From NCBI GenBank assembly GCA_030606485.1, contig JAUWGH010000006.1, positions 199,966-263,965 on the forward strand: 64,000 nt of DNA, read 5' to 3'. This DNA is from Promethearchaeota archaeon. GTDB taxonomy: Archaea > Asgardarchaeota > Lokiarchaeia > Sigyniarchaeales > SOKP01. The position numbers and the translations under genes were made by a program. The notes below the pieces were generated by a model. It was not told the DNA's origin. It did not search any database and saw nothing but the letters and a program-made list of their open reading frames with translations. Numbering within the stretch: position 1 is the first letter of the stretch; each line of letters begins with the position of its first letter. Below are positions 53,095 to 64,000 of this stretch, piece after piece.

Positions 53095-54972
53095 ATGACA
53101 ACTCCAACTACTAATTCAATAATTACCAAAGAAAATATGTTAGGTGTAATAAAAATTGCTGATTTAATTGTTAAAAATGGTTTAGAAGATGCAGTTCTTA
53201 GTAGAGGCGAAGAGGCTGAAAGAAAACGAGAACTTTATCATAATGAGATAAGGCCTAAAATTGAAGATTATATAAGAAAAAATAATAAAACTCCAAATCT
53301 CATTTTAAAAAAATTTTTGGATAATTATATCGATGAAAATAACCTAAAAGACGAAATTGAATCAATAGGCCGCCATTTTTATGGTCAAAAATTATATGCT
53401 TATACATGGGCATCAATTACAAAAATAGATCCCAGTATTCCTAATAAAAAATTTTCTTTTTATCCTCAATTATACATTCTAATTAATAAAGATGGTATTA
53501 AATTTGGTTTTGATTATGGTTCTTATATCTCTAATGATAATGAGAAAGTAAAAATAGGCAAAAACGATTCAGAAATACAAGAAAACATTGTTAATTTTAT
53601 AAATACCAATCCTGCTTTAAAAATATATAAAAAATCAAATCCTAGCATAGAACCAAATCCGGAGGACAAAATAACTCTAGTAACTCCAGAAAATTTTAAG
53701 GATAAATGGGATAAAAATATTCATATTATTAAGTTCATATCTGAGGAAAATATCCCAGATGATATCGAAGCAGAAATAAAATCAACATTTGATACTCTCC
53801 TCTTTATTTTTTCTAAAACCTCTTTATTAAATATTCAAATTGAGCAACCAGAAACAAACGGTGAGACACTGCCTGAACAACCAGTTGCTCCACGCATACT
53901 CACTTATGGTGATATAAGAGCATCACTAAATATTTTTCATGATAAAATAAATCAATTAGGAGAAATTGATCTAAAGAAAGAGAATTTATATTTTAAAAAT
54001 GAAAAATCAATATTAACACAAATTAAAATTGCATTAGAAAAGGGTAAAAATCTTATTCTTATCGGACCACCAGGTACCGGAAAATCGAAATTAGCAAAGG
54101 CTATTTGTGAATATATATGTGGTCCTAACATGTATGTTATGAGTACGGCAACATCAGATTGGTCTACATTTGATACGATTGGTGGATACAGACCAAATGT
54201 TGAAGGATTATTGGAGTTTTTTCCTGGAATTTTTCTTCAATGTTTTATGGATGGAAAAACACCAGTAAATAAATGGTTGATAATAGATGAAATAAATAGA
54301 GCGGATATTGATAAAGCCTTTGGAGCATTATTTTCTGCCTTAACAGGTGATAATATACTATTACCATTTGAAATTTCTAAACCAGGAGAAACAGGAGAAA
54401 AGATTAAGATTTTTGGAAAACCTATTGACAAAATAAAAATCAAACCAAATCACTTCATTATTCCCCAAGATTGGCGAATTATTGCAACAATGAATACTTT
54501 TGATAAGAGCTCTTTATATGAAATGAGTTATGCTTTTATGAGACGCTTTGCTTTCATTAATATTTCGATACCCTTTTTAACAAATGAGGCAGATTATGAA
54601 AATCTGATAACCTTTTACATTAAAATCTGGGAAAATATAACTGATAGTGATATCAATAGTGATGAGTCAAAAAAGGTAATTATAAAAAATTTAGCAAAGA
54701 TGTGGTATGAAATTAGTAAATATCGAACAATCGGTCCAGCAATAATCGAAGATATTTATAAATATTTGCTATCAGATAACTCTGATTATATTTCCCCTTT
54801 AGATCTTTATGTTTTACCTCAATTTGAAGGTTTATCTGAACAAGATCAAATAGAATTCATAAGAGAAATTCAGAAAAAGGATTTTATTGGTAATAACAAG
54901 AGTGATTTAGTAAAATTTGCATCAGAATACTTCGGTATAAACAAAAATTTATTAAAACCAGAAGTAAAATGA
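53095..54972 (+). CDS. McrB-like AAA+ NTPase
   Basis: The 625-residue protein has an N-terminal domain of about 270 residues that includes a beta-rich DNA-recognition-like part (FYPQLYILINKDGIKFGFDY), then a McrB-type AAA+ domain: Walker A LILIGPPGTGKSKLAKAI near residue 325, IGGYRPNVEGLLEFFPGIF, Walker B KWLIIDEINRADIDKAFGAL near 400, and sensor IIATMNTFDKSSLYEMSYAF with the RRF arginine finger. McrB proteins use GTP to move on modified or foreign DNA and drive a McrC nuclease; the next gene codes for such a nuclease. Complete. Confidence 0.9.
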   Translation: MTTPTTNSIITKENMLGVIKIADLIVKNGLEDAVLSRGEEAERKRELYHNEIRPKIEDYIRKNNKTPNLILKKFLDNYIDENNLKDEIESIGRHFYGQKLYAYTWASITKIDPSIPNKKFSFYPQLYILINKDGIKFGFDYGSYISNDNEKVKIGKNDSEIQENIVNFINTNPALKIYKKSNPSIEPNPEDKITLVTPENFKDKWDKNIHIIKFISEENIPDDIEAEIKSTFDTLLFIFSKTSLLNIQIEQPETNGETLPEQPVAPRILTYGDIRASLNIFHDKINQLGEIDLKKENLYFKNEKSILTQIKIALEKGKNLILIGPPGTGKSKLAKAICEYICGPNMYVMSTATSDWSTFDTIGGYRPNVEGLLEFFPGIFLQCFMDGKTPVNKWLIIDEINRADIDKAFGALFSALTGDNILLPFEISKPGETGEKIKIFGKPIDKIKIKPNHFIIPQDWRIIATMNTFDKSSLYEMSYAFMRRFAFINISIPFLTNEADYENLITFYIKIWENITDSDINSDESKKVIIKNLAKMWYEISKYRTIGPAIIEDIYKYLLSDNSDYISPLDLYVLPQFEGLSEQDQIEFIREIQKKDFIGNNKSDLVKFASEYFGINKNLLKPEVK

Positions 54973-55056
54973 GTTATTTTTCTTTAATTTCTTCCCAAAT
55001 CCTAATAAAAAGAGTAAAAACCGCAGAAGTATTTTTAATCTCAATAGGTAATCAAT

Positions 55057-56409
55057 TTGACTAAAGTTAGTAAAGACGATTTAATTGAGGAGATAGCATC
55101 CGATTTTATTGCTTATCTAAAAAACGGTGTGATTAATACCGAGTCAATTGTCAAAAGATTAGAACTTCAGCTTAATACTAACATTTTTGATTTTTATAGA
55201 TTATTGAGAATTCATTTTGTTTTATGTGATGATGTAATCAATTTTGTTGAAAAATTGCCTTTAAGTTTGAGGAGAATCAAAACTAACGTGAAAACTGAAA
55301 CTGAAGTATCACACGGGGAAGTACGCGGGAAAATCAATTGGGGTATTACCATAAAACATAGATTTAGTGAAGACCCGATAAGCAAAATTCTATTTGTTTG
55401 TGATAAACGGGAAAAAAATTACGATATACCAGAAAATATTATTCTTAAAAAGATTATACACCTAATAACTACGATTTTATCTAATGATTTAAAAGATGCC
55501 ATAAGTAAAAAGCCGGATTGGCTTAAGATATGGGTAAATAAAAAAGATTTAAAGAATAGAATCAACTTGTTATATGCAAAAAACATTTATTTGAAAAGAA
55601 TCAAACCAACCGATAAAAAAATTACCATGAGAATAATTAGTCGTTCTCTAAAATCGAGAAATCCTCTATATAGAGATGCTACCGCACTTCTTTTAAAATA
55701 TAAAAACTTAATGAATTTTAATATCGATAAAAAAGAAACAATTCAAATTTTCAAAAATACATTTATTGAACCAGAACCCGAGACTTTATTCGAATTATAC
55801 TGGATTATTAAAATTCTCAATGAATTTACTGATTATAAACCAGAATATCAATTAATAGAATACGGAAATAATATTATTGCTAAATGGGAACTGGAAGATT
55901 ATAAGTATATAATTTACCACAATTCCACAGGGAGTTCCAACATCTCTTTTTTCGAGGGAATTTTAGATACATATAAGGATTTGAAAAAGAAAAATAATTA
56001 TATCGGTAGAAAACTCAAAGCTGCAAAAAAATTTTTTCTTTTAACTTCTAGAAAGTCACGTTCGTTGTGGGAAGGAAGACCGGATATTCTTATTGAAAAA
56101 TATGATAAAAACAATAATCTAATTCTCATATTCTTGGGAGAAGTGAAATATACACAAAATTATGATTATGCTCTTGATGGTTTAATGCAATTACTCGAAT
56201 ATATTGCCTTGGTTAAGGAAAGTGAAAGCTATTTAAAAGACTATTATAGGATTTATAAAAAAGTTAGAAGTGATAAAAAGAATGTGATTGGTGGATTATT
56301 TATCGATAATATAAAAGATTTTAAAATTTCAGATGATAACCAAATTAGAATATATAAATACAAAAAGAATAAAACATACAACATTAAAGATTATATATTA
56401 AATTTTTAG
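55057..56409 (+). CDS. McrC-like PD-(D/E)XK nuclease
   Basis: The 450-residue protein has a nuclease core near its C-terminus: SLWEGRPDILIEKYDKNNN, then ILIFLGEVKYTQNYDYAL near residue 365, giving the D and E-x-K of PD-(D/E)XK folds. The first 340 residues are helical with basic stretches (RIISRSLKSRNPLYRDAT). The start is TTG at 55057 with GGTAATC before it. It follows the McrB-like gene by 84 bases. The pair would form a type IV-like restriction system. The N-terminal region is not like classical McrC, so the detail is uncertain. Confidence 0.78.
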   Translation: MTKVSKDDLIEEIASDFIAYLKNGVINTESIVKRLELQLNTNIFDFYRLLRIHFVLCDDVINFVEKLPLSLRRIKTNVKTETEVSHGEVRGKINWGITIKHRFSEDPISKILFVCDKREKNYDIPENIILKKIIHLITTILSNDLKDAISKKPDWLKIWVNKKDLKNRINLLYAKNIYLKRIKPTDKKITMRIISRSLKSRNPLYRDATALLLKYKNLMNFNIDKKETIQIFKNTFIEPEPETLFELYWIIKILNEFTDYKPEYQLIEYGNNIIAKWELEDYKYIIYHNSTGSSNISFFEGILDTYKDLKKKNNYIGRKLKAAKKFFLLTSRKSRSLWEGRPDILIEKYDKNNNLILIFLGEVKYTQNYDYALDGLMQLLEYIALVKESESYLKDYYRIYKKVRSDKKNVIGGLFIDNIKDFKISDDNQIRIYKYKKNKTYNIKDYILNF

Positions 56410-56542
56410 AGCTAAATATCAATATGAAATCCCAATTTTTTAATATTTAATTAAAATGTAAATCAATTCAATTGAAAATATAATTGATAAATACATTTTT
56501 AATTTTAAAAAAAGATTTATAACCTGTTTGGAAAAAAATTAG

Positions 56543-57220
56543 GTGAAAGATAAAAATATGCTAAGTAAAACAATATTTAATCAACCTTATTTTCTAACAT
56601 TAAAAGAATTAAGATTTTGTGGAAGAATTGTTAATAATCTAAAAAATATTTTGATACAAAAATATCAAATTCAAAATTTTAAAGAAATTATTAAAAATCT
56701 ATTAGATTTAAATCTAATATATAAATCCCTTGATAGCGATAAAACGGGAGAACAAAAAGTATCTTTATATGTATTGACTCAAAAAGGAAGATATTTATTA
56801 GAATCCATATATGTCCTCGAAGATATATCATCGGGAAAAATCAATATAAATGAATACCTCTCCCTATTAAAACCTCAATTAAAGAATTCTATCTTTCTAA
56901 GTTTTGAGAACATCTGGACTATAATAAAAGAAAAAATTAAACCAGGAGTGATCTTATATTCTTTGAAACAAAGTAAGTCAAATGAAATTATAGCAATTAG
57001 TGAATTAGGTATTACGGTTAAAACTGAAAGAGGAACTGCCCTAATATATAAAATAGATATTAGAAAGGCTTGGTGTAATTTGGTTTTAGATGGCGTGTTA
57101 ATTCGAGATGAACATGAAAAATCTACTTATCGAAGCTCTTTTATGTTAATGTTATTTTCACAATTTGATTTTGTAATAGTAATTAATAAACCTCGCCTCT
57201 CCATAAAATTATCATTTTAA
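56543..57220 (+). CDS. winged-helix protein with an extra C-terminal domain, unknown
   Basis: The 225-residue protein has a winged-helix part in its first 90 residues (LTLKELRFCGRIVNNLKNI, then VSLYVLTQKGRYLLESIYV) and a C-terminal mixed alpha-beta part with TVKTERGTALIYKIDIRKAW and YRSSFMLMLFSQFDFV. The start is GTG at 56543. It is the last gene of the rightward group after the McrBC-like pair, separated by 133 bases; it could regulate the group. I do not recognise the C-terminal domain. Confidence 0.55.
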   Translation: MKDKNMLSKTIFNQPYFLTLKELRFCGRIVNNLKNILIQKYQIQNFKEIIKNLLDLNLIYKSLDSDKTGEQKVSLYVLTQKGRYLLESIYVLEDISSGKININEYLSLLKPQLKNSIFLSFENIWTIIKEKIKPGVILYSLKQSKSNEIIAISELGITVKTERGTALIYKIDIRKAWCNLVLDGVLIRDEHEKSTYRSSFMLMLFSQFDFVIVINKPRLSIKLSF

Positions 57221-57628
57221 ACGAAAATAATCATATGATTTTAAGTACACAATTTTTAGAATTGTGGAATTGATTGATGTAATAAATTAGTCTTGCTAAT
57301 CCTAAAGTAGGAAAAAACGTATTAAATATGATAATTAATCCAATTGAAAATAGAGAAGATTTAAATTATTTTAATTTTAATTGGAGTATCTTCTTTCTAT
57401 TATGACAAATATATAAATAGAACTTTATTGATAATTTAAATATAGAATTAATGGAATTATTAACAGAATCCATCGCATTTTAAAAAAGATAAGAATCAAT
57501 CTAACTCTTAATTAAGGAGATTTTTTTATTATATAATTATAAATATGATAATACGTGAAATTAACCGTTTCACGATCATTAAATTTTTTAGGTTTAATTA
57601 AATTTTAGAGACAATTTTCGTGATCTTA
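57221..57628. other. gap between convergent genes, with a hairpin
   Basis: About 400 bases between two gene ends. Apart from the hairpin at 57554-57574 nothing is recognised. AATCCAATTGAAAATAGAGA at 57336 resembles AATCCAATTGTAAATAGAGA at 39137, also just behind a gene end; this short match may be a remnant of a shared sequence. Confidence 0.5.
57554..57574. terminator. hairpin between convergent genes
   Basis: CGTGAAA-TTAACCG-TTTCACG forms a perfect 7-base stem with a 7-base loop, 55 bases behind the end of the leftward SIR2 gene and 334 bases behind the rightward winged-helix gene. AT-rich runs lie on both sides. It may end transcription from both directions or serve as a protein site. Confidence 0.45.
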
Positions 57629-58810
57629 TTATTCATACACCTGTAAAAATTCATTTATATCCTTACATAATGTAGGAGCTTTATCAAAATGTGTAAAGTC
57701 CACCGCAATTTGAGCTGCTGATTTATCAGGATTGACAATAATTAACTCTTCCAATTTATTTTTAGAAAAAACATCTAAAAAAAGCTTTTTAATTGAAAAA
57801 TCAGTTTGAGAGAATGAATATCCAATTATTATAAGTTGTTTACATTGCTCAAGATATAATTTTGCTAAATTCCAAAGCTCTTTAAAAGGATTTTGTTGAA
57901 TTAAATCATTTTTGTAAAGGACTGGAGTGATTATTAATGGATCTAACATCCAACCATTTAAATCAGGAGGTTCATTAATCCACCAAAACCCATTGATTAA
58001 AACAATTTGATTTATTAATTTTTGATCTTTATTTTTTGGTGTTGAATACTTATAAATAGGTAATACTTTAAACCAATTTAAAGAACCATGAAGTTTTAAA
58101 ATTTTCCATTCGTATAATGCATTATCTGGTATATTATAAAACTTATTTCGATCAATATATATTGGAGTTCCTGATTGGTAAAGTTGTACTTTGTTAAATT
58201 TAATTCCATAACTTAAGGGGCGATTCCAATTAAAATGACTATAAGTTATTAATTCATTTGGGATTTTGCTTAATCTCTTCCTAAGATCAATATCATAAAA
58301 AGATTTAGGTATTTCTGATCTAGGCATAGAAACAAGTTCAATTAATGCTTCTAGAATACAGTCATAATTAAAAGTAATTATGTTTGGCTTTTTCCTCCAA
58401 ATCAATTTAGTAAATACTCTTAAATCCTCCGATTTATAGCAATGTATTTCAAATTCTTTTAAAAATGAAGCCAAAAGATTTTTCAATTGAAAATTAATAT
58501 TTACTAATTGTAAATGTTCTTTAGGGTTTGTGGCATAATCAATTTCATTAATTTTTAATTGAAGGAAAGTGAAAATATCTTCCAAATTAAAGGGATTTTT
58601 AAGAAGATCATCTTTAGATTTCTTCCAATGATCTTGGATAAAGGTATAAAGAGGTTTCAATTTCTCAAAGTAAGCTTTATCTGTAAATTTTTCACTTTTA
58701 AGGATTGTTTGAAAAAAATTATTAGCTAGAGGTGGTTTTAATCCATTCCAATCCTCAACAGATTGGTTGAATCCCGCTCCTAATAAAAATAAGGTATTAG
58801 TATTAGTCAT
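57629..58810 (-). CDS. SIR2-domain protein (defence-type NADase/NAD-binding)
   Basis: The 393-residue protein has SIR2-like NAD-binding motifs: LFLLGAGFNQSVEDWN at the start, IITFNYDCILEALIE near residue 147, ILKLHGSLNWFKVLP near 235 and LIIIGYSFSQTDFSIKKLF near 332. SIR2 domains of this kind act as NAD-degrading effectors in several phage defence systems. It lies at the end of the leftward cluster with the radical SAM and TcmP-like genes. No STAND or Argonaute partner is next to it, so the sensor must be another gene of the cluster. Confidence 0.87.
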   Translation of the reverse strand: MTNTNTLFLLGAGFNQSVEDWNGLKPPLANNFFQTILKSEKFTDKAYFEKLKPLYTFIQDHWKKSKDDLLKNPFNLEDIFTFLQLKINEIDYATNPKEHLQLVNINFQLKNLLASFLKEFEIHCYKSEDLRVFTKLIWRKKPNIITFNYDCILEALIELVSMPRSEIPKSFYDIDLRKRLSKIPNELITYSHFNWNRPLSYGIKFNKVQLYQSGTPIYIDRNKFYNIPDNALYEWKILKLHGSLNWFKVLPIYKYSTPKNKDQKLINQIVLINGFWWINEPPDLNGWMLDPLIITPVLYKNDLIQQNPFKELWNLAKLYLEQCKQLIIIGYSFSQTDFSIKKLFLDVFSKNKLEELIIVNPDKSAAQIAVDFTHFDKAPTLCKDINEFLQVYE

Positions 58811-58884
58811 AATTTTATTTTAATTCATATTTAATTTCATATCAACTTATGTTTAAAATTTGATTTTTAAAACTAAAATTTAAT

Positions 58885-59496
58885 TTAAATCCATTTTTTT
58901 GTAAATTTTGAGTAGTTATATTGATCTATTATTTTAATAAGACTTTTCTCTGATAAATCAATATAACCTTTCACTTTTTCCGCTAATTTTTTTATCATTT
59001 TTGAAAAACTGATATATTTTTCTGCTGGATTCTCTTTATAGGAACAATTATAAGCTTTTGCTATACTTACATCCCAAAGGGGAAAGAATTTGGGAGCTAA
59101 AAGATGTAAAGCTTTAGCAGCAGAAACAGGACTTTTTTTAACTTTACCTTCATTAATTATAATTTTAGAAGCTTCAAGTAGTTCATTAAACAAATCTGTT
59201 ATGCATTCATTATCAAGGTCTGAAAATGTTAATATATCCCTCTTTCTAAAATCCTCCAAGAGGTTTAAATTTTTTTTTATAAATCTCTCGATTTCATCAA
59301 TATCTAGACTTGAATACCTATAGAAAGCTTGATTCCAGGTTAATAATAATACTCCAAGAGCATCAGCCATTTCAGTTGGATTCCCCCAAAAGTGGTTTAT
59401 AAGAAATGATGATACTTTATACATTGAATCTCGTTTTTCATTATCTTCAAATTTTTTGATACCTTCTCGAAAATCATTTTCTTCTGGAATTTCCAT
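58885..59496 (-). CDS. unknown helical protein of the TcmP/SIR2 cluster
   Basis: The protein of 203 residues is almost all helical. The best-defined segment, near residue 125, reads SAAKALHLLAPKFFPLWD and then VSIAKAYNC, a pattern (pocket lined by H, P, F, W, D) that resembles DNA glycosylase-like or DUF6308-like folds, but I cannot give a firm family. The ATG at 59496 is preceded by GATGAT; a second in-frame start lies nine bases upstream. It is 17 bases behind the TcmP-like gene and 74 bases ahead of the SIR2 gene. Confidence 0.55.
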   Translation of the reverse strand: MEIPEENDFREGIKKFEDNEKRDSMYKVSSFLINHFWGNPTEMADALGVLLLTWNQAFYRYSSLDIDEIERFIKKNLNLLEDFRKRDILTFSDLDNECITDLFNELLEASKIIINEGKVKKSPVSAAKALHLLAPKFFPLWDVSIAKAYNCSYKENPAEKYISFSKMIKKLAEKVKGYIDLSEKSLIKIIDQYNYSKFTKKWI

Positions 59497-59522
59497 TTTA
59501 ATCATCTTAAATAATGCTTAAA

Positions 59523-60545
59523 TTAAAAATTTCTTAAGTTTTTATATGTGAATCTATCTATCGTTTTAGATTTGCCCATAGCGATATCCCACATACTCTT
59601 AACATCCTCATCTGTCCAATATTTAAATCTTTTATTCCTGTAATGTTTAATCATCTCTAACCAATCTCCACTAACATCTTTTCTACAGCAAAACAATAGC
59701 GTATAGTAAAATCCTGATTTTGAAGCAATTTTTAATTTTTCGATCCTTCCGAATTTAATTTTTCTCAATTGTTCAACATATAAGTCGCTTAGTTCATTTC
59801 TCTTTGTATCAGGAGGGACTACTCTGCCAAAGAATCTTAGAACTTTTTTTGGATGTAGTTTTAAATTTCTAGCAATTCCTGCATCTTGAAAGGTTATAAT
59901 TATATCCCCAAAATCATGAATCTCTTTAATATTTCTTATTGTTTCATAATAAATGTCCATTCCTTGATTATCAATAACCATTAAATAATTAAAAGATTCA
60001 TCTTTCTTGCGAATCTCTTTTAAAATGTCTAAAACCCATTGATTTGAATCAATTTTATTTTTGTTAGTATTAATCTCTATATCAATATGATTTTGGATTG
60101 CGTTATTGAATGCTTTAAGTCTGTTATATAACACAGTTCTCTTATCTTGTTTAATATCATTGGAATAAATTTTGGAAAAACCATTATGCTTTTTATGAGA
60201 TATTAATGCAGCACTTATTGATGTTCCTGGAAAAATAAATTGATCTTTCCCAGCCTGTTTAGTTACTTTATTCATGCCAAAGCTACTTAACAGATCAATA
60301 AAATATAATTTAATATACGATCTTTTTCCTAAAATAGTCAAATATTCATCAATATAATGTCTAAATACAATCTGTTTTGTAGCCATCCACCAGCCTGCTT
60401 TATCATTTTTTTTATAAAAATGATTAGGATTTGATAAAGAGAAATTAGGAATTTTTCTTAAAAAGTTAGAATCTTCTATTAAATTTTTAATATTTTCTAA
60501 GTGAAATTCAAATTTAGTTTGGTCACTCAATTCGGGAAACGACAT
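59523..60545 (-). CDS. three-Cys-motif partner protein (TcmP-like)
   Basis: The 340-residue protein fits the TcmP family (TIGR04474): KQIVFRHYIDEYLTILG near residue 57, YIKLYFIDLLSSFGMN near 80, then FPGTSISAALISHKKH and YLMVIDNQGMDIYYETI near 190. Members occur beside a radical SAM three-Cys-motif protein, exactly as here (the gene at 60624, 78 bases upstream). A methyltransferase-like or nuclease-like Rossmann core has been suggested for the family; the function is not known. The end of the protein is basic. Confidence 0.83.
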   Translation of the reverse strand: MSFPELSDQTKFEFHLENIKNLIEDSNFLRKIPNFSLSNPNHFYKKNDKAGWWMATKQIVFRHYIDEYLTILGKRSYIKLYFIDLLSSFGMNKVTKQAGKDQFIFPGTSISAALISHKKHNGFSKIYSNDIKQDKRTVLYNRLKAFNNAIQNHIDIEINTNKNKIDSNQWVLDILKEIRKKDESFNYLMVIDNQGMDIYYETIRNIKEIHDFGDIIITFQDAGIARNLKLHPKKVLRFFGRVVPPDTKRNELSDLYVEQLRKIKFGRIEKLKIASKSGFYYTLLFCCRKDVSGDWLEMIKHYRNKRFKYWTDEDVKSMWDIAMGKSKTIDRFTYKNLRNF

Positions 60546-60623
60546 AATATAAATTAGAATAATTCGTATATTTGAGGTTTTTATCTCTTATTATTTGCAT
60601 AGATTAAATTAATATTTATTTTT

Positions 60624-61394
60624 TTAGATACTGGAAGATATGGAGTTAAATATACTATCCTTAATTCTTAGAAAAGAAGGATCATATTTTTTTGCGCGTT
60701 CTAATATTTTAAGTAAGTTTTCTTTGGAATTAATTTCTTTAATTGAGTCATAAATTATTTTATCTCTTAAATTTATATTTTTTCTGGAGATATAATTCAT
60801 TTTACCGATCCAAATTGATTCTGTTACATATGGAATTAATGTATCAACTAAATCAAAAGGATTATTATCTAAATAGGGTTCAATTGAGATACTAGTTTTA
60901 TATCCTTGGCTATAAGAAAATTTTAAAGCCTTAAATCTTTCCTCGAATTTTGGCGCTCCAGGCTCCCAAAACTTAAGTATTTCATTGTTTAATGAGGTAA
61001 TAGTAAATCTAAATTGAATCTGGTCTTTAAATTTTTGAAATTCTATACAAATTTTTTTAATACAATCAAATTTTGGCTTAGTAGTTATTAAAATCTCGTT
61101 TTGAGATTCAAGTAATTTTCTTAAGACAGTTAAACAATTATCTAAACTTTCTCTCGTAATATCATGAGAAGTAGGAAACATAACTCGACCTTGTCGCTTA
61201 TGATATCCCTTATCAATATATTTTTGGTTCGGTTCCATTATTTTCCATGTTTCTTCTGTCTTTCGATTAAAACGAATAGCCATTTTTTTTGCATAGCAAT
61301 ATCGGCAATTGTTTGAGCATCCAACATAACAGTTCACGTTACTATCGGCCCATTCTTTAGTTCCTAAAGTTATTTTTCGAGTTTTAGTCTCCAT
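60624..61394 (-). CDS. radical SAM three-Cys-motif protein (partner of TcmP)
   Basis: The 256-residue protein opens ITLGTKEWADSNVNCYVGC with the radical SAM cluster CSNNCRYCYAKKMA (CX3CX2C) near residue 25. Later parts, ILITTKPKFDCIKKICIEF near 110, FRFTITSLNNEILKFWEPG near 128 and TSISIEPYLD near 168, follow the family of Gp37/Gp68-like and spore photoproduct lyase-like radical SAM proteins. It should bind a 4Fe-4S cluster and SAM and might modify or repair nucleic acid. The gene heads the group with TcmP, the 203-residue protein and SIR2. Confidence 0.87.
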   Translation of the reverse strand: METKTRKITLGTKEWADSNVNCYVGCSNNCRYCYAKKMAIRFNRKTEETWKIMEPNQKYIDKGYHKRQGRVMFPTSHDITRESLDNCLTVLRKLLESQNEILITTKPKFDCIKKICIEFQKFKDQIQFRFTITSLNNEILKFWEPGAPKFEERFKALKFSYSQGYKTSISIEPYLDNNPFDLVDTLIPYVTESIWIGKMNYISRKNINLRDKIIYDSIKEINSKENLLKILERAKKYDPSFLRIKDSIFNSISSSI

Positions 61395-61592: not shown

Positions 61593-62306
61593 TTATAAGA
61601 CAAATGTGGTTGATCCAGATTGATTTGGATTTTTCATTTTTAATTTATATCCAAGTTTTACCATTTCATTAATGAATAGTTCAGATCTAAAATAATTTTT
61701 TAATATTTGACCATGTCGATGTCCATGAATAATTTTAATTTCTCCGCCTTTTCTAATTCTGCATTCCTCAAGATGGTTAATTATTTCCTCTTTTGCATCC
61801 CATAATGTTAATCCATGCAAGTTACATGTAATATTTTTAGGGTTATAATAATCTTTTTCTATAATTTGTTCTATTTTGTCTGAATACTTTATTGCTTTAT
61901 TTATTTTAGGCCAATCTGTCGGAGTTTTTTCTTTAAATTTATCCGTTATCCTTAGTGTTTTTCTTTTGTTTTTCATACTTTTCTTTTTTTGATCAAAAAT
62001 ATTCCACGATCTTGGATCTAATTTATTATATATTTTTTTTTCTTTAGTTTTTTTTAATTTTTCTTTAGTTTTTTTTAATTTTACATTATGTTTTGCAATC
62101 ATATGTTGGTTAAGGTCTGTATCATTAACAAATTTTTTTTCACATTTAGGACATATTATTCCATGTTCAGCCCTCCTATGCTTTCGTAGTTTTTTTTTAG
62201 TAGCAAATTTTTCTTTGCAATTAGGACATATAAAATTTTGAATATTTTTATTTACTTTTTGTTGTTCTCTATTCTTTTCTTTATAACTGGAACGTTTTCT
62301 AGTAAC
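61593..62306 (-). CDS. C2H2 zinc finger-Smr domain protein, start codon not canonical
   Basis: The open frame encodes 237 residues with two C2H2 zinc fingers (C27, C30, H43, H48 and C52, C55, H68, H73; CPNCKEKF and CPKCEKKF), a Lys-rich linker, and a C-terminal Smr domain (CNLHGLTLWDAKEEIINHL, then KIIHGHRHGQILKNYF and a STTFVL end). Smr domains are DNA or RNA endonucleases. The first legal ATG (62102) lies inside zinc finger 2 and would destroy both. GAGGTGAT at 62311-62318 is a perfect ribosome binding site, but at start distance only GTT (62306) is in frame. It lies 22 bases behind the CARF-wHTH gene. Confidence 0.82.
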   Translation of the reverse strand, partial: VTRKRSSYKEKNREQQKVNKNIQNFICPNCKEKFATKKKLRKHRRAEHGIICPKCEKKFVNDTDLNQHMIAKHNVKLKKTKEKLKKTKEKKIYNKLDPRSWNIFDQKKKSMKNKRKTLRITDKFKEKTPTDWPKINKAIKYSDKIEQIIEKDYYNPKNITCNLHGLTLWDAKEEIINHLEECRIRKGGEIKIIHGHRHGQILKNYFRSELFINEMVKLGYKLKMKNPNQSGSTTFVL

Positions 62307-62328
62307 TTTTATATCACCTCATAGAAAA

Positions 62329-62997
62329 TTAAATAAACCATTTACCTTTATCAGTAATTTCAAAAACTCTTTCTTTTCCCTTTTTTTCACTCGAAATTTC
62401 AATTAAGCCTATCTCCCTCAAATTTTTGAGGTATCTCGAAATCATTCCTTTACTTAAACCAGTTTCTTTTATTATCTTCTTTTGTGATAGATTTTTAGAA
62501 TTTATTAAAAATAAGAGATTTTTTAATGGCTCCGATAACGGAACAGGCAAATATATTTCGATAGGTTTTATAGGTTTGTTTAAATCAGAGTCTTTTGGGA
62601 TATAATAAAAAATATCAATTAAATTCTCAACAGTGGCTAAAAAATATGCTGAGAATCTCCATAATTCTAATCCAGAAGTTGCATTAAAGTAAATCCTGTA
62701 TTCTAATCTTTTTAGTTCTCTTGTCTTTTCTTTTATAATGTGTATAAATTCTAAAACATCTCTAGTCTTAATTCTAATTATCTCAATTTTTTTAATCAAT
62801 TTAGGTTCCAATTTTCTTTTATCAGATAAACTATAGCTTGGAATTAATTCTTGTTTGAGTTTATTTGCCAAATCAATATATTCCTTCTGAGGGGTTGTTA
62901 AAATTATTAAATAATTCCAATCATAATATAATAGACCTTCTTTAATCCAGTCTGGATTCATTCCTAAAGGAGCAATATGACAAATTATGTTTTGCAT
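62329..62997 (-). CDS. CARF-domain winged-helix regulator (Csa3-like)
   Basis: The protein of 222 residues has an N-terminal CARF-like Rossmann domain: IICHIAPLGMNPDWIKEG at the start, LIILTTPQKEYIDLANKL, and the ligand-loop strand YRIYFNATSGLELWRFSAYF near residue 105, close to the N-x-TGG loop of Csa3. The C-terminal winged helix is KKIIKETGLSKGMISRYL and LIEISSEKKGKERVFEITDK. Csa3 proteins bind cyclic oligoadenylates and control CRISPR or toxin genes. No cas gene is in the window. The ATG at 62997 is used; a palindrome (63011-63029) lies just upstream. Confidence 0.8.
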   Translation of the reverse strand: MQNIICHIAPLGMNPDWIKEGLLYYDWNYLIILTTPQKEYIDLANKLKQELIPSYSLSDKRKLEPKLIKKIEIIRIKTRDVLEFIHIIKEKTRELKRLEYRIYFNATSGLELWRFSAYFLATVENLIDIFYYIPKDSDLNKPIKPIEIYLPVPLSEPLKNLLFLINSKNLSQKKIIKETGLSKGMISRYLKNLREIGLIEISSEKKGKERVFEITDKGKWFI

Positions 62998-63010
62998 TCT
63001 TCTCAAAAAA

Positions 63011-63048
63011 GTTTATTAATATAATAAACCTTTATAAAATTAATAAAC
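63011..63048. promoter_or_regulatory. palindromic operator between the CARF-wHTH gene and the HEPN-like gene
   Basis: GTTTATTA-ATA-TAATAAAC is a perfect inverted repeat with 8-base arms at 63011-63029, followed by a third half-site TAATAAAC at 63041-63048. It starts 14 bases before the ATG of the CARF-wHTH gene and is 77 bases before the start of the divergent gene. It is the only site of its kind seen here and is best explained as the binding site of the CARF-wHTH protein. Confidence 0.7.
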
Positions 63049-63124
63049 TTAATTAATAAAAATTAATTATTTTTTAAAAATATTTCGTATTAATTATAAA
63101 AATAATAGAAGGAGGTATTCAATA

Positions 63125-64000
63125 ATGGATTTACCAAAAATTATTTTTTCAAATCCTATTTCTAGAGATTTAAAGTCAAAAATTGAAGTGTCAAGTAGAG
63201 ATTTTGTCGAATTGATCAAAAATGATAAATTAAATATCGTATTCAGTGCTTGTACGCCACATTATCCACAGCGAAAAGAAAATTTCTTATATACTGTTAA
63301 AGAAGGATTTTTTATTATTGCTAATAATAGAGAGTTGAAATATTTAGAACAATTCTATGAAATTCAAAAAGGTAATTTTCCTAGTTTTTACGCATATTTG
63401 GAAGCTATGTATTATAATATTGAAAATTATGAGAGTTATCAAGCTTTTAAAGAAAGTACATTTTGGAGTCATGAACTTGTTTATTATGATAATTTCTTAG
63501 ACGCCAAAAAAAAAGGTTTTACTAATAAGCAGGAATATGAATACGCAAAAGTTCAAGGGATTAAAAATAAACAGGAATTAGATGATTATAGGAATTCAGG
63601 TATTTCTGTATATTCAGAATATTTAAACTTTAAAAAAGGGGGATTCAAAGACAAAAATGAGTTTGGTAAAGCAATAACGTTAGGTTTTCAAACTGCAGAA
63701 GAATATCATGAATTTCTTGCCAATCGATATAAATCTCGTTTAAATAAAATTAATGAGATTAATGAAGATTTAAATTCAGCATATGAATCAAATCGATTTG
63801 AAGAATTCATTAGATTAAAATTTCTATCAATTGAAAAAATGGCTGATTTATTATATTTAAAGTTATTTGAAAAAGAATTAACAAAAGAAAATGATTTGCA
63901 ATTAGAAGATATTTTCAAAAAAATAGAAGAAAAATTAAATGAAAAATTCGTTGATTATGAAGAATTAAAAAATTGGCGAGTGATTCGGAATAAAATTGCA
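63125..64000 (+). CDS. repeat protein with a HEPN-like end, 3' part outside the window
   Basis: The open frame of 292 codons runs off the right edge. Residues about 125-195 carry two to three copies of an about 20-residue pattern of the type GFTNKQEYEYAKVQGIKN, GISVYSEYLNFKKGGFKD and ITLGFQTAEEYHEF. The last visible residues, DYEELKNWRVIRNKIA, match the helix of HEPN domains that carries the R-N/x4-H motif; the His would lie outside the window. GGAGGT at 63110 precedes the ATG. It is divergent from the CARF-wHTH gene and shares the palindrome, so it may be an RNase effector under cyclic-nucleotide control. Confidence 0.72.
   Translation, partial: MDLPKIIFSNPISRDLKSKIEVSSRDFVELIKNDKLNIVFSACTPHYPQRKENFLYTVKEGFFIIANNRELKYLEQFYEIQKGNFPSFYAYLEAMYYNIENYESYQAFKESTFWSHELVYYDNFLDAKKKGFTNKQEYEYAKVQGIKNKQELDDYRNSGISVYSEYLNFKKGGFKDKNEFGKAITLGFQTAEEYHEFLANRYKSRLNKINEINEDLNSAYESNRFEEFIRLKFLSIEKMADLLYLKLFEKELTKENDLQLEDIFKKIEEKLNEKFVDYEELKNWRVIRNKIA

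What the first reader, a model, noticed from the sequence alone, without database searches (positions are those of the whole stretch)
61593..64000. CARF-wHTH regulator, zinc finger-Smr protein and divergent HEPN-like protein around one palindrome
A Csa3-like CARF-wHTH gene is followed by a C2H2-Smr gene and faces a gene with a HEPN-like end. GTTTATTA-ATA-TAATAAAC plus a third half-site lies between the divergent genes. Seen: the domains, the gene order and the palindrome. Known: CARF proteins bind cyclic oligonucleotides, and HEPN and Smr are nuclease folds. Inferred: a CRISPR-independent, signal-controlled nuclease system. No cas gene is visible.
Basis: partly seen in the sequence, partly recalled or inferred. 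Interest (0 to 1): 0.85.

Follow-up and report, generated by a model that had tools for sequence, protein, structure and literature searches.

The report
CRISPR-free CARF switch beside HEPN RNase
In a Lokiarchaeon genome in which no CRISPR adaptation gene (cas1) or Cas10 was found, a gene switch of the kind that normally senses CRISPR alarm molecules (a CARF-winged-helix protein) shares a control region with a probable RNA-cutting HEPN enzyme; close relatives of the switch each sit next to a different HEPN candidate, which points to a stand-alone alarm-controlled RNase defence.

Summary
The 222-aa protein is a CARF-wHTH regulator (PADLOC CARF3, E 2e-16). The facing gene encodes a 327-aa protein whose motif RNKIAH is completed just past the window edge, in a family that conserves W..iRN..xHE. 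The palindrome is half of a 38-bp tandem array (two 19-bp sites), unique in the genome and conserved 13-14 nt before the start codon of the CARF gene in three orthologues. The C2H2-Smr gene exists but has no ATG/GTG/TTG start and was not found beside the orthologues. All three 66-100%-identical CARF genes, and two remote ones, adjoin an RNxxxH protein; the background rate for that is about 10% per gene, and the three partners are not detectably homologous. Other Asgard CARF regulators adjoin TPR-HEPN proteins, prokaryotic viperins or CD-NTases. Most likely this is an autoregulated CARF transcription switch controlling an RNase effector in a defence island: a new variant of a known kind. Ligand, direction of regulation and RNase activity are inferred. 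Both AlphaFold models were too weak to test the folds, so the CARF and HEPN assignments rest on sequence.

The parts
62329..62997 (-). CARF-wHTH regulator, 222 aa (alternative TTG start 63006)
   Evidence: orthologues 66-68% identical in G002 and G023
63011..63029 (-). operator-like site 2: GTTTATTATATTAATAAAC (reads GTTTATTAATATAATAAAC on +), 13 nt before the CARF start codon
63030..63048 (-). operator-like site 1, abutting site 2: GTTTATTAATTTTATAAAG; part of the conserved AAGTTTATTAATnnTnTAAAGGTT; may overlap the BRE/TATA of the CARF gene (inferred)
63125..64000 (+). first 292 of 327 codons of the HEPN-like protein; continues to window-equivalent 64108, with RNKIAH at codons 288-293. N-terminal domain, GF repeats, C-terminal HEPN-like domain
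61593..62312 (-). C2H2 (two fingers)-Smr protein, about 238 aa, in the same orientation directly behind the CARF gene; no ATG/GTG/TTG start; probably a bystander or recent addition

Best explanation
A CRISPR-independent, ligand-responsive transcription switch of a probable RNase effector, lying in a defence island. The CARF-wHTH protein, presumably a dimer like Csa3, binds the 38-bp tandem array over its own promoter and so autoregulates. From the same intergenic region it sets expression of the divergent HEPN protein; in the Loki_b32 relative the HEPN-motif gene instead lies directly downstream of it. A nucleotide or RNA-fragment signal made during infection would be bound by the CARF domain, change DNA binding and raise HEPN expression, leading to RNA cleavage and dormancy or abortive infection. 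Shown: gene order, CARF and wHTH domains, HEPN-type motif, conserved array, recurrent association, no detected Cas1 or Cas10. Inferred: dimerisation, the ligand, the sign of regulation, RNase activity, defence role.
For: CARF3 profile E=2e-16 over the whole protein. RNKIAH completed and conserved as RN..xH in 5 of 6 aligned family members; the HEPN relative in L050 matches Csx1/Csm6 (CARF+HEPN) profiles at its end, E=4e-4. No Cas1 and no Cas10 palm2 in G000, G023, G021. RNxxxH neighbours: G000 (divergent), G002 (divergent, RNKAVH), G023 (downstream same strand, 26-bp gap, RNAIFH), G021 (convergent, RNSCSH), G103 (downstream, RNSLIH). Background: 5% of ORFs carry the motif and a random gene has such a neighbour in 9.8% of cases, so three close homologues out of three is about 1e-3 by chance. 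The partners found no homologues in each other at phmmer E<=1e-3. Array conserved at a fixed distance from the ATG. Other Asgard CARF regulators adjoin TPR-HEPN, pVip or CD-NTase genes. Precedents: Csa3a palindrome near BRE/TATA (PMC8699464); CARF transcription factors beside HEPN RNases in CoCoNuTs (PMC11090510).
Against: Both AlphaFold models are poor (pLDDT 54.5 and 37.9); Foldseek on the first finds only the wHTH. No HEPN Pfam family passes its cut-off for P0001. No ligand-synthesising gene lies in the locus. The partner HEPN proteins differ in every orthologue, so co-residence in defence islands could explain part of the association. The second 19-mer is not clearly palindromic in G002 (4 of 9 arm positions, near random). 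G002 does have Cas10. HEPN-Z relatives are common in the family (47 of 147 genomes), so its adjacency in G002 is weaker evidence.
Confidence: 0.55

Rival explanations
1. Bystanders in a defence island: the CARF-wHTH protein only autoregulates or controls something else, and the HEPN gene is an independent defence gene that landed beside it.
For: Dense island: McrB-like, SIR2, TcmP-like, radical SAM and NERD-UvrD genes nearby. HEPN partners differ in each orthologue. The conserved array lies over the CARF promoter.
Against: Three of three close homologues and two remote ones have an immediate RNxxxH neighbour against a 9.8% background; in G023 the HEPN-motif gene follows the CARF gene by 26 bp.
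Confidence: 0.25
2. RtcR-like feedback: the CARF domain senses RNA fragments with cyclic-phosphate ends, including those made by the HEPN RNase, rather than a dedicated cyclic oligonucleotide.
For: No Cas10 in G000 and no cyclase gene in the locus; proposed for RtcR-like CARF regulators of CoCoNuT HEPN systems (PMC11090510).
Against: This CARF belongs to the CARF3/Csa3 type, not RtcR. CARF regulators with CD-NTase neighbours exist in G018, G033 and G010, and G000 has one NTase with a CBASS-cyclase match elsewhere (E 7e-8).
Confidence: 0.12
3. A toxin-antitoxin-like pair: the CARF-wHTH protein is simply a repressor of a toxic HEPN RNase, and the CARF domain has lost ligand binding.
For: Divergent or adjacent small regulator and HEPN motif protein.
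Against: The CARF motif N-x-T-x-G is invariant in the four aligned homologues, so ligand binding is probably kept.
Confidence: 0.08

Closest known systems
Csa3 (CARF-wHTH regulators of CRISPR loci, e.g. S. solfataricus Csa3a)
   Same: Domain order CARF then wHTH, palindromic promoter element, archaeal host.
   Different: No cas genes at the locus, no Cas1 or Cas10 found in the genome; Csa3 model below cut-off; second ligand motif differs; the neighbour is a HEPN-like protein.
Csm6/Csx1 (CARF-HEPN ribonucleases)
   Same: CARF sensor linked to a HEPN RNase; the HEPN of relative L050 weakly matches Csx1/Csm6 profiles.
   Different: Sensor and RNase are separate genes and the link would be transcriptional.
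CoCoNuT type IV systems with CARF (RtcR-like) transcription factors
   Same: CARF transcription factor beside a HEPN RNase, outside CRISPR.
   Different: Different CARF class (CARF3, not RtcR with AAA+); no coiled-coil or CnuE-type protein seen beside the CARF gene.
CBASS (CD-NTase signalling)
   Same: Related Asgard CARF regulators lie beside CD-NTases (G018, G033, G010).
   Different: No CD-NTase at this locus; the output is a transcription factor, not a directly activated effector.

Membership tests
CARF3 / Csa3-type CARF-wHTH | N-terminal CARF plus C-terminal wHTH | tested here: met
   PADLOC CARF3 E=2e-16 full length; wHTH Pfam models above cut-off
Csa3 (CRISPR-associated) | NCBIfam Csa3 score above curated cut-off | tested here: not met
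   TIGR01884 30.9 bits against 60.2
Csa3 (CRISPR-associated) | Association with cas genes | tested here: not met
   No cas gene in the genes scanned at the locus; no Cas1 or Cas10 palm2 match in G000
Csa3 (CRISPR-associated) | Binding of cyclic oligoadenylate | not testable with these tools
   needs biochemistry
HEPN superfamily | Rx4-6H with a polar residue after R, conserved in the family | tested here: met
   RNKIAH; RN..xH in 5 of 6 aligned family members
HEPN superfamily | All-helical HEPN fold or a profile above cut-off | tested here: inconclusive
   DUF6548 and DUF4145 below cut-off; relative L050 matches Csx1/Csm6 at E=4e-4; P0001 itself was not folded
Csm6/Csx1 | CARF and HEPN in one polypeptide | tested here: not met
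   separate divergent genes
CBASS | CD-NTase in the locus | tested here: not met
   one SMODS match in G000, on contig C3, not at this locus
CoCoNuT | McrB GTPase and McrC-type coiled-coil genes with a CnuE HEPN effector in one operon | not tested
   an McrB-like gene lies 7 kb away, but CoCoNuT motifs were not examined

The most novel reading that the evidence does not exclude
Asgard archaea use a dispersed, CRISPR-free immune network in which CARF-wHTH and wHTH-CARF transcription factors, fed by CD-NTase signals made elsewhere in the genome, switch on exchangeable effectors (HEPN RNases, viperins); the window holds one such switch with a HEPN effector.
Probability: 0.22. Interest if true: 0.85.

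Novelty: new variant of a known kind. Interest (0 to 1): 0.62.

Why it matters
CARF domains are mainly understood as readers of CRISPR type III alarm molecules. [quoted passage not shown]

Tried and rejected
C2H2-Smr as a conserved part: rejected. Viral-contig relatives of P0001, P0002 and the L046 HEPN protein: none. Structure test: AlphaFold of the CARF protein (two sequences) pLDDT 54.5, with only the wHTH matched in PDB; the HEPN partner in L046 gave pLDDT 37.9 and was not searched further. PDB sequence searches gave essentially only wHTH regulators for the CARF profile and nothing useful for the HEPN family. A CD-NTase in the locus: none. The palindrome as a chance AT-rich repeat: not excluded from the window alone, disfavoured by the orthologues. 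No paper on CARF-wHTH with HEPN or viperin in Asgard archaea was found in the searches made.

Full report
What is there. The window is G000:C4:199966-263965 of a 3.75-Mb, 13-contig genome; the nearest named relative found is Candidatus Lokiarchaeota archaeon Loki_b32. Reading past the edge completes the HEPN-like gene: 327 aa, WRVIRNKIAHEH. The next gene to the right encodes a NERD-UvrD protein. The CARF-wHTH protein is 222 aa and matches CARF3 profiles over its whole length (E 2e-16), with Csa3 and CasR models weaker; the NCBIfam Csa3 model matches below its cut-off. The C2H2-Smr frame is real but has no ATG, GTG or TTG upstream of its fingers.

Control region. On the CARF strand the intergenic DNA reads AA GTTTATTAATTTTATAAAG GTTTATTATATTAATAAAC, then 13 nt and ATG. 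The exact array occurs once in the genome. In orthologues G002 and G023 the same two abutting 19-mers stand 14 nt before the ATG; 28 of 38 positions agree in all three, shuffles reach at most 21. Within the fetched loci the core AAGTTTATTAATnnTnTAAAGGTT appears only at these three promoters. The dyad of site 2 is clear in G000 but near random in G002, so the conserved thing is the array rather than the perfect palindrome. Its place before the start codon fits autoregulation; the first site could also contain the BRE/TATA. Both points are inference.

Neighbours. Close CARF homologues: G002 (66%), G023 (68%); remote: G021 (32%). Every one has a protein with the HEPN-type RNxxxH motif next door: G000 divergent; G002 a divergent zinc-ribbon protein with RNKAVH, family members mostly keeping RNK.xH; G023 directly downstream, RNAIFH; G021 convergent TPR protein, RNSCSH. 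The more remote G103 has RNSLIH directly downstream. Partners found no homologues in each other at phmmer E<=1e-3. RNxxxH occurs in 5% of ORFs of 100 aa or more in the fetched loci and window, 1.5% after shuffling, and a random gene has such a neighbour with probability 0.098. In another family the CARF gene lies two genes from a ParA/Ras-like ATPase with a DUF4145 (HEPN) end above cut-off. On the CARF tree the HEPN-linked members fall together, with weak support at the deciding fork. Other distant CARF hits lie beside viperins, cas-like genes or none of these, so HEPN linkage is a property of one part of the tree.

Wider pattern. A second regulator type, wHTH-CARF (PADLOC CARF_m5), sits next to our CARF orthologue in G002 and elsewhere adjoins TPR-HEPN proteins (G052, G015), a RNEACH protein (G077), CD-NTases (G033, G010) or prokaryotic viperins (G015, G010; E below 1e-80). 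A CARF-wHTH gene in G018 lies about 1.3 kb from a CD-NTase. One relative of the window's HEPN family (L050, G033) lies in the same gene string as the CARF_m5 and CD-NTase genes.

CRISPR independence. No Cas1 match in G000, G002, G023, G021 and no Cas10 palm2 match in G000, G023, G021, while the same searches ring in G033 and G010. G002 has Cas10. Apart from G000 (completeness 100%, contamination 4.65%) these four assemblies are estimated 79-95% complete. The only NTase of the CBASS-cyclase kind found in G000 is a 226-aa protein on another contig (E 7e-8); whether it makes a signal is unknown.

Mechanism and limits. Best reading: CARF-wHTH autoregulator whose ligand-dependent DNA binding sets expression of a HEPN RNase. 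The ligand, the direction of regulation, catalysis and the defence role are not shown. Literature precedents: Csa3a and its palindrome upstream of BRE/TATA (PMC8699464), Csa3 with cA4 (PMC8844856), CARF transcription factors beside HEPN RNases in CoCoNuTs (PMC11090510), HEPN motif definition (PMC3710099).

Noticed in passing
window 53095-61394: Defence island to the left: McrB-like AAA+ (53095-54972), a 450-aa protein directly behind it that may be its McrC partner (no profile match), SIR2 protein (57629-58810), TcmP-like PDC-M41A protein (59523-60545) beside a radical SAM protein with a weak DUF5131 match (60624-61394).
   Followed up: partly
L007:6214-7986: NERD-UvrD helicase protein (PADLOC C3a187, E 5e-74) directly right of the HEPN gene, on the same contig.
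   Followed up: no
L135:6548-9000 and L173:4835-6479: wHTH-CARF (CARF_m5) regulator gene divergent from a prokaryotic viperin; in L135 also directly followed by a CD-NTase gene. CARF control of viperin is a lead worth its own study.
   Followed up: partly
L111:7189-8855 and L112:6066-7761: CARF-wHTH gene divergent from a radical SAM gene (pVip, E 2e-78 in L111; the L112 neighbour is similar by eye).
   Followed up: partly
L134:3906-4586: 226-aa nucleotidyltransferase (PADLOC cyclase E 7e-8) in the window's own genome, contig C3; a candidate signal maker acting in trans.
   Followed up: no
window 61593-62312: C2H2-Smr frame without an ATG/GTG/TTG start after GAGGTGAT; possible rare start codon or sequence error.
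   Followed up: partly
L057:6034-8676: 880-aa protein made largely of GF repeats (GF..-EY..A...G) like those in the middle of the window's HEPN protein.
   Followed up: no
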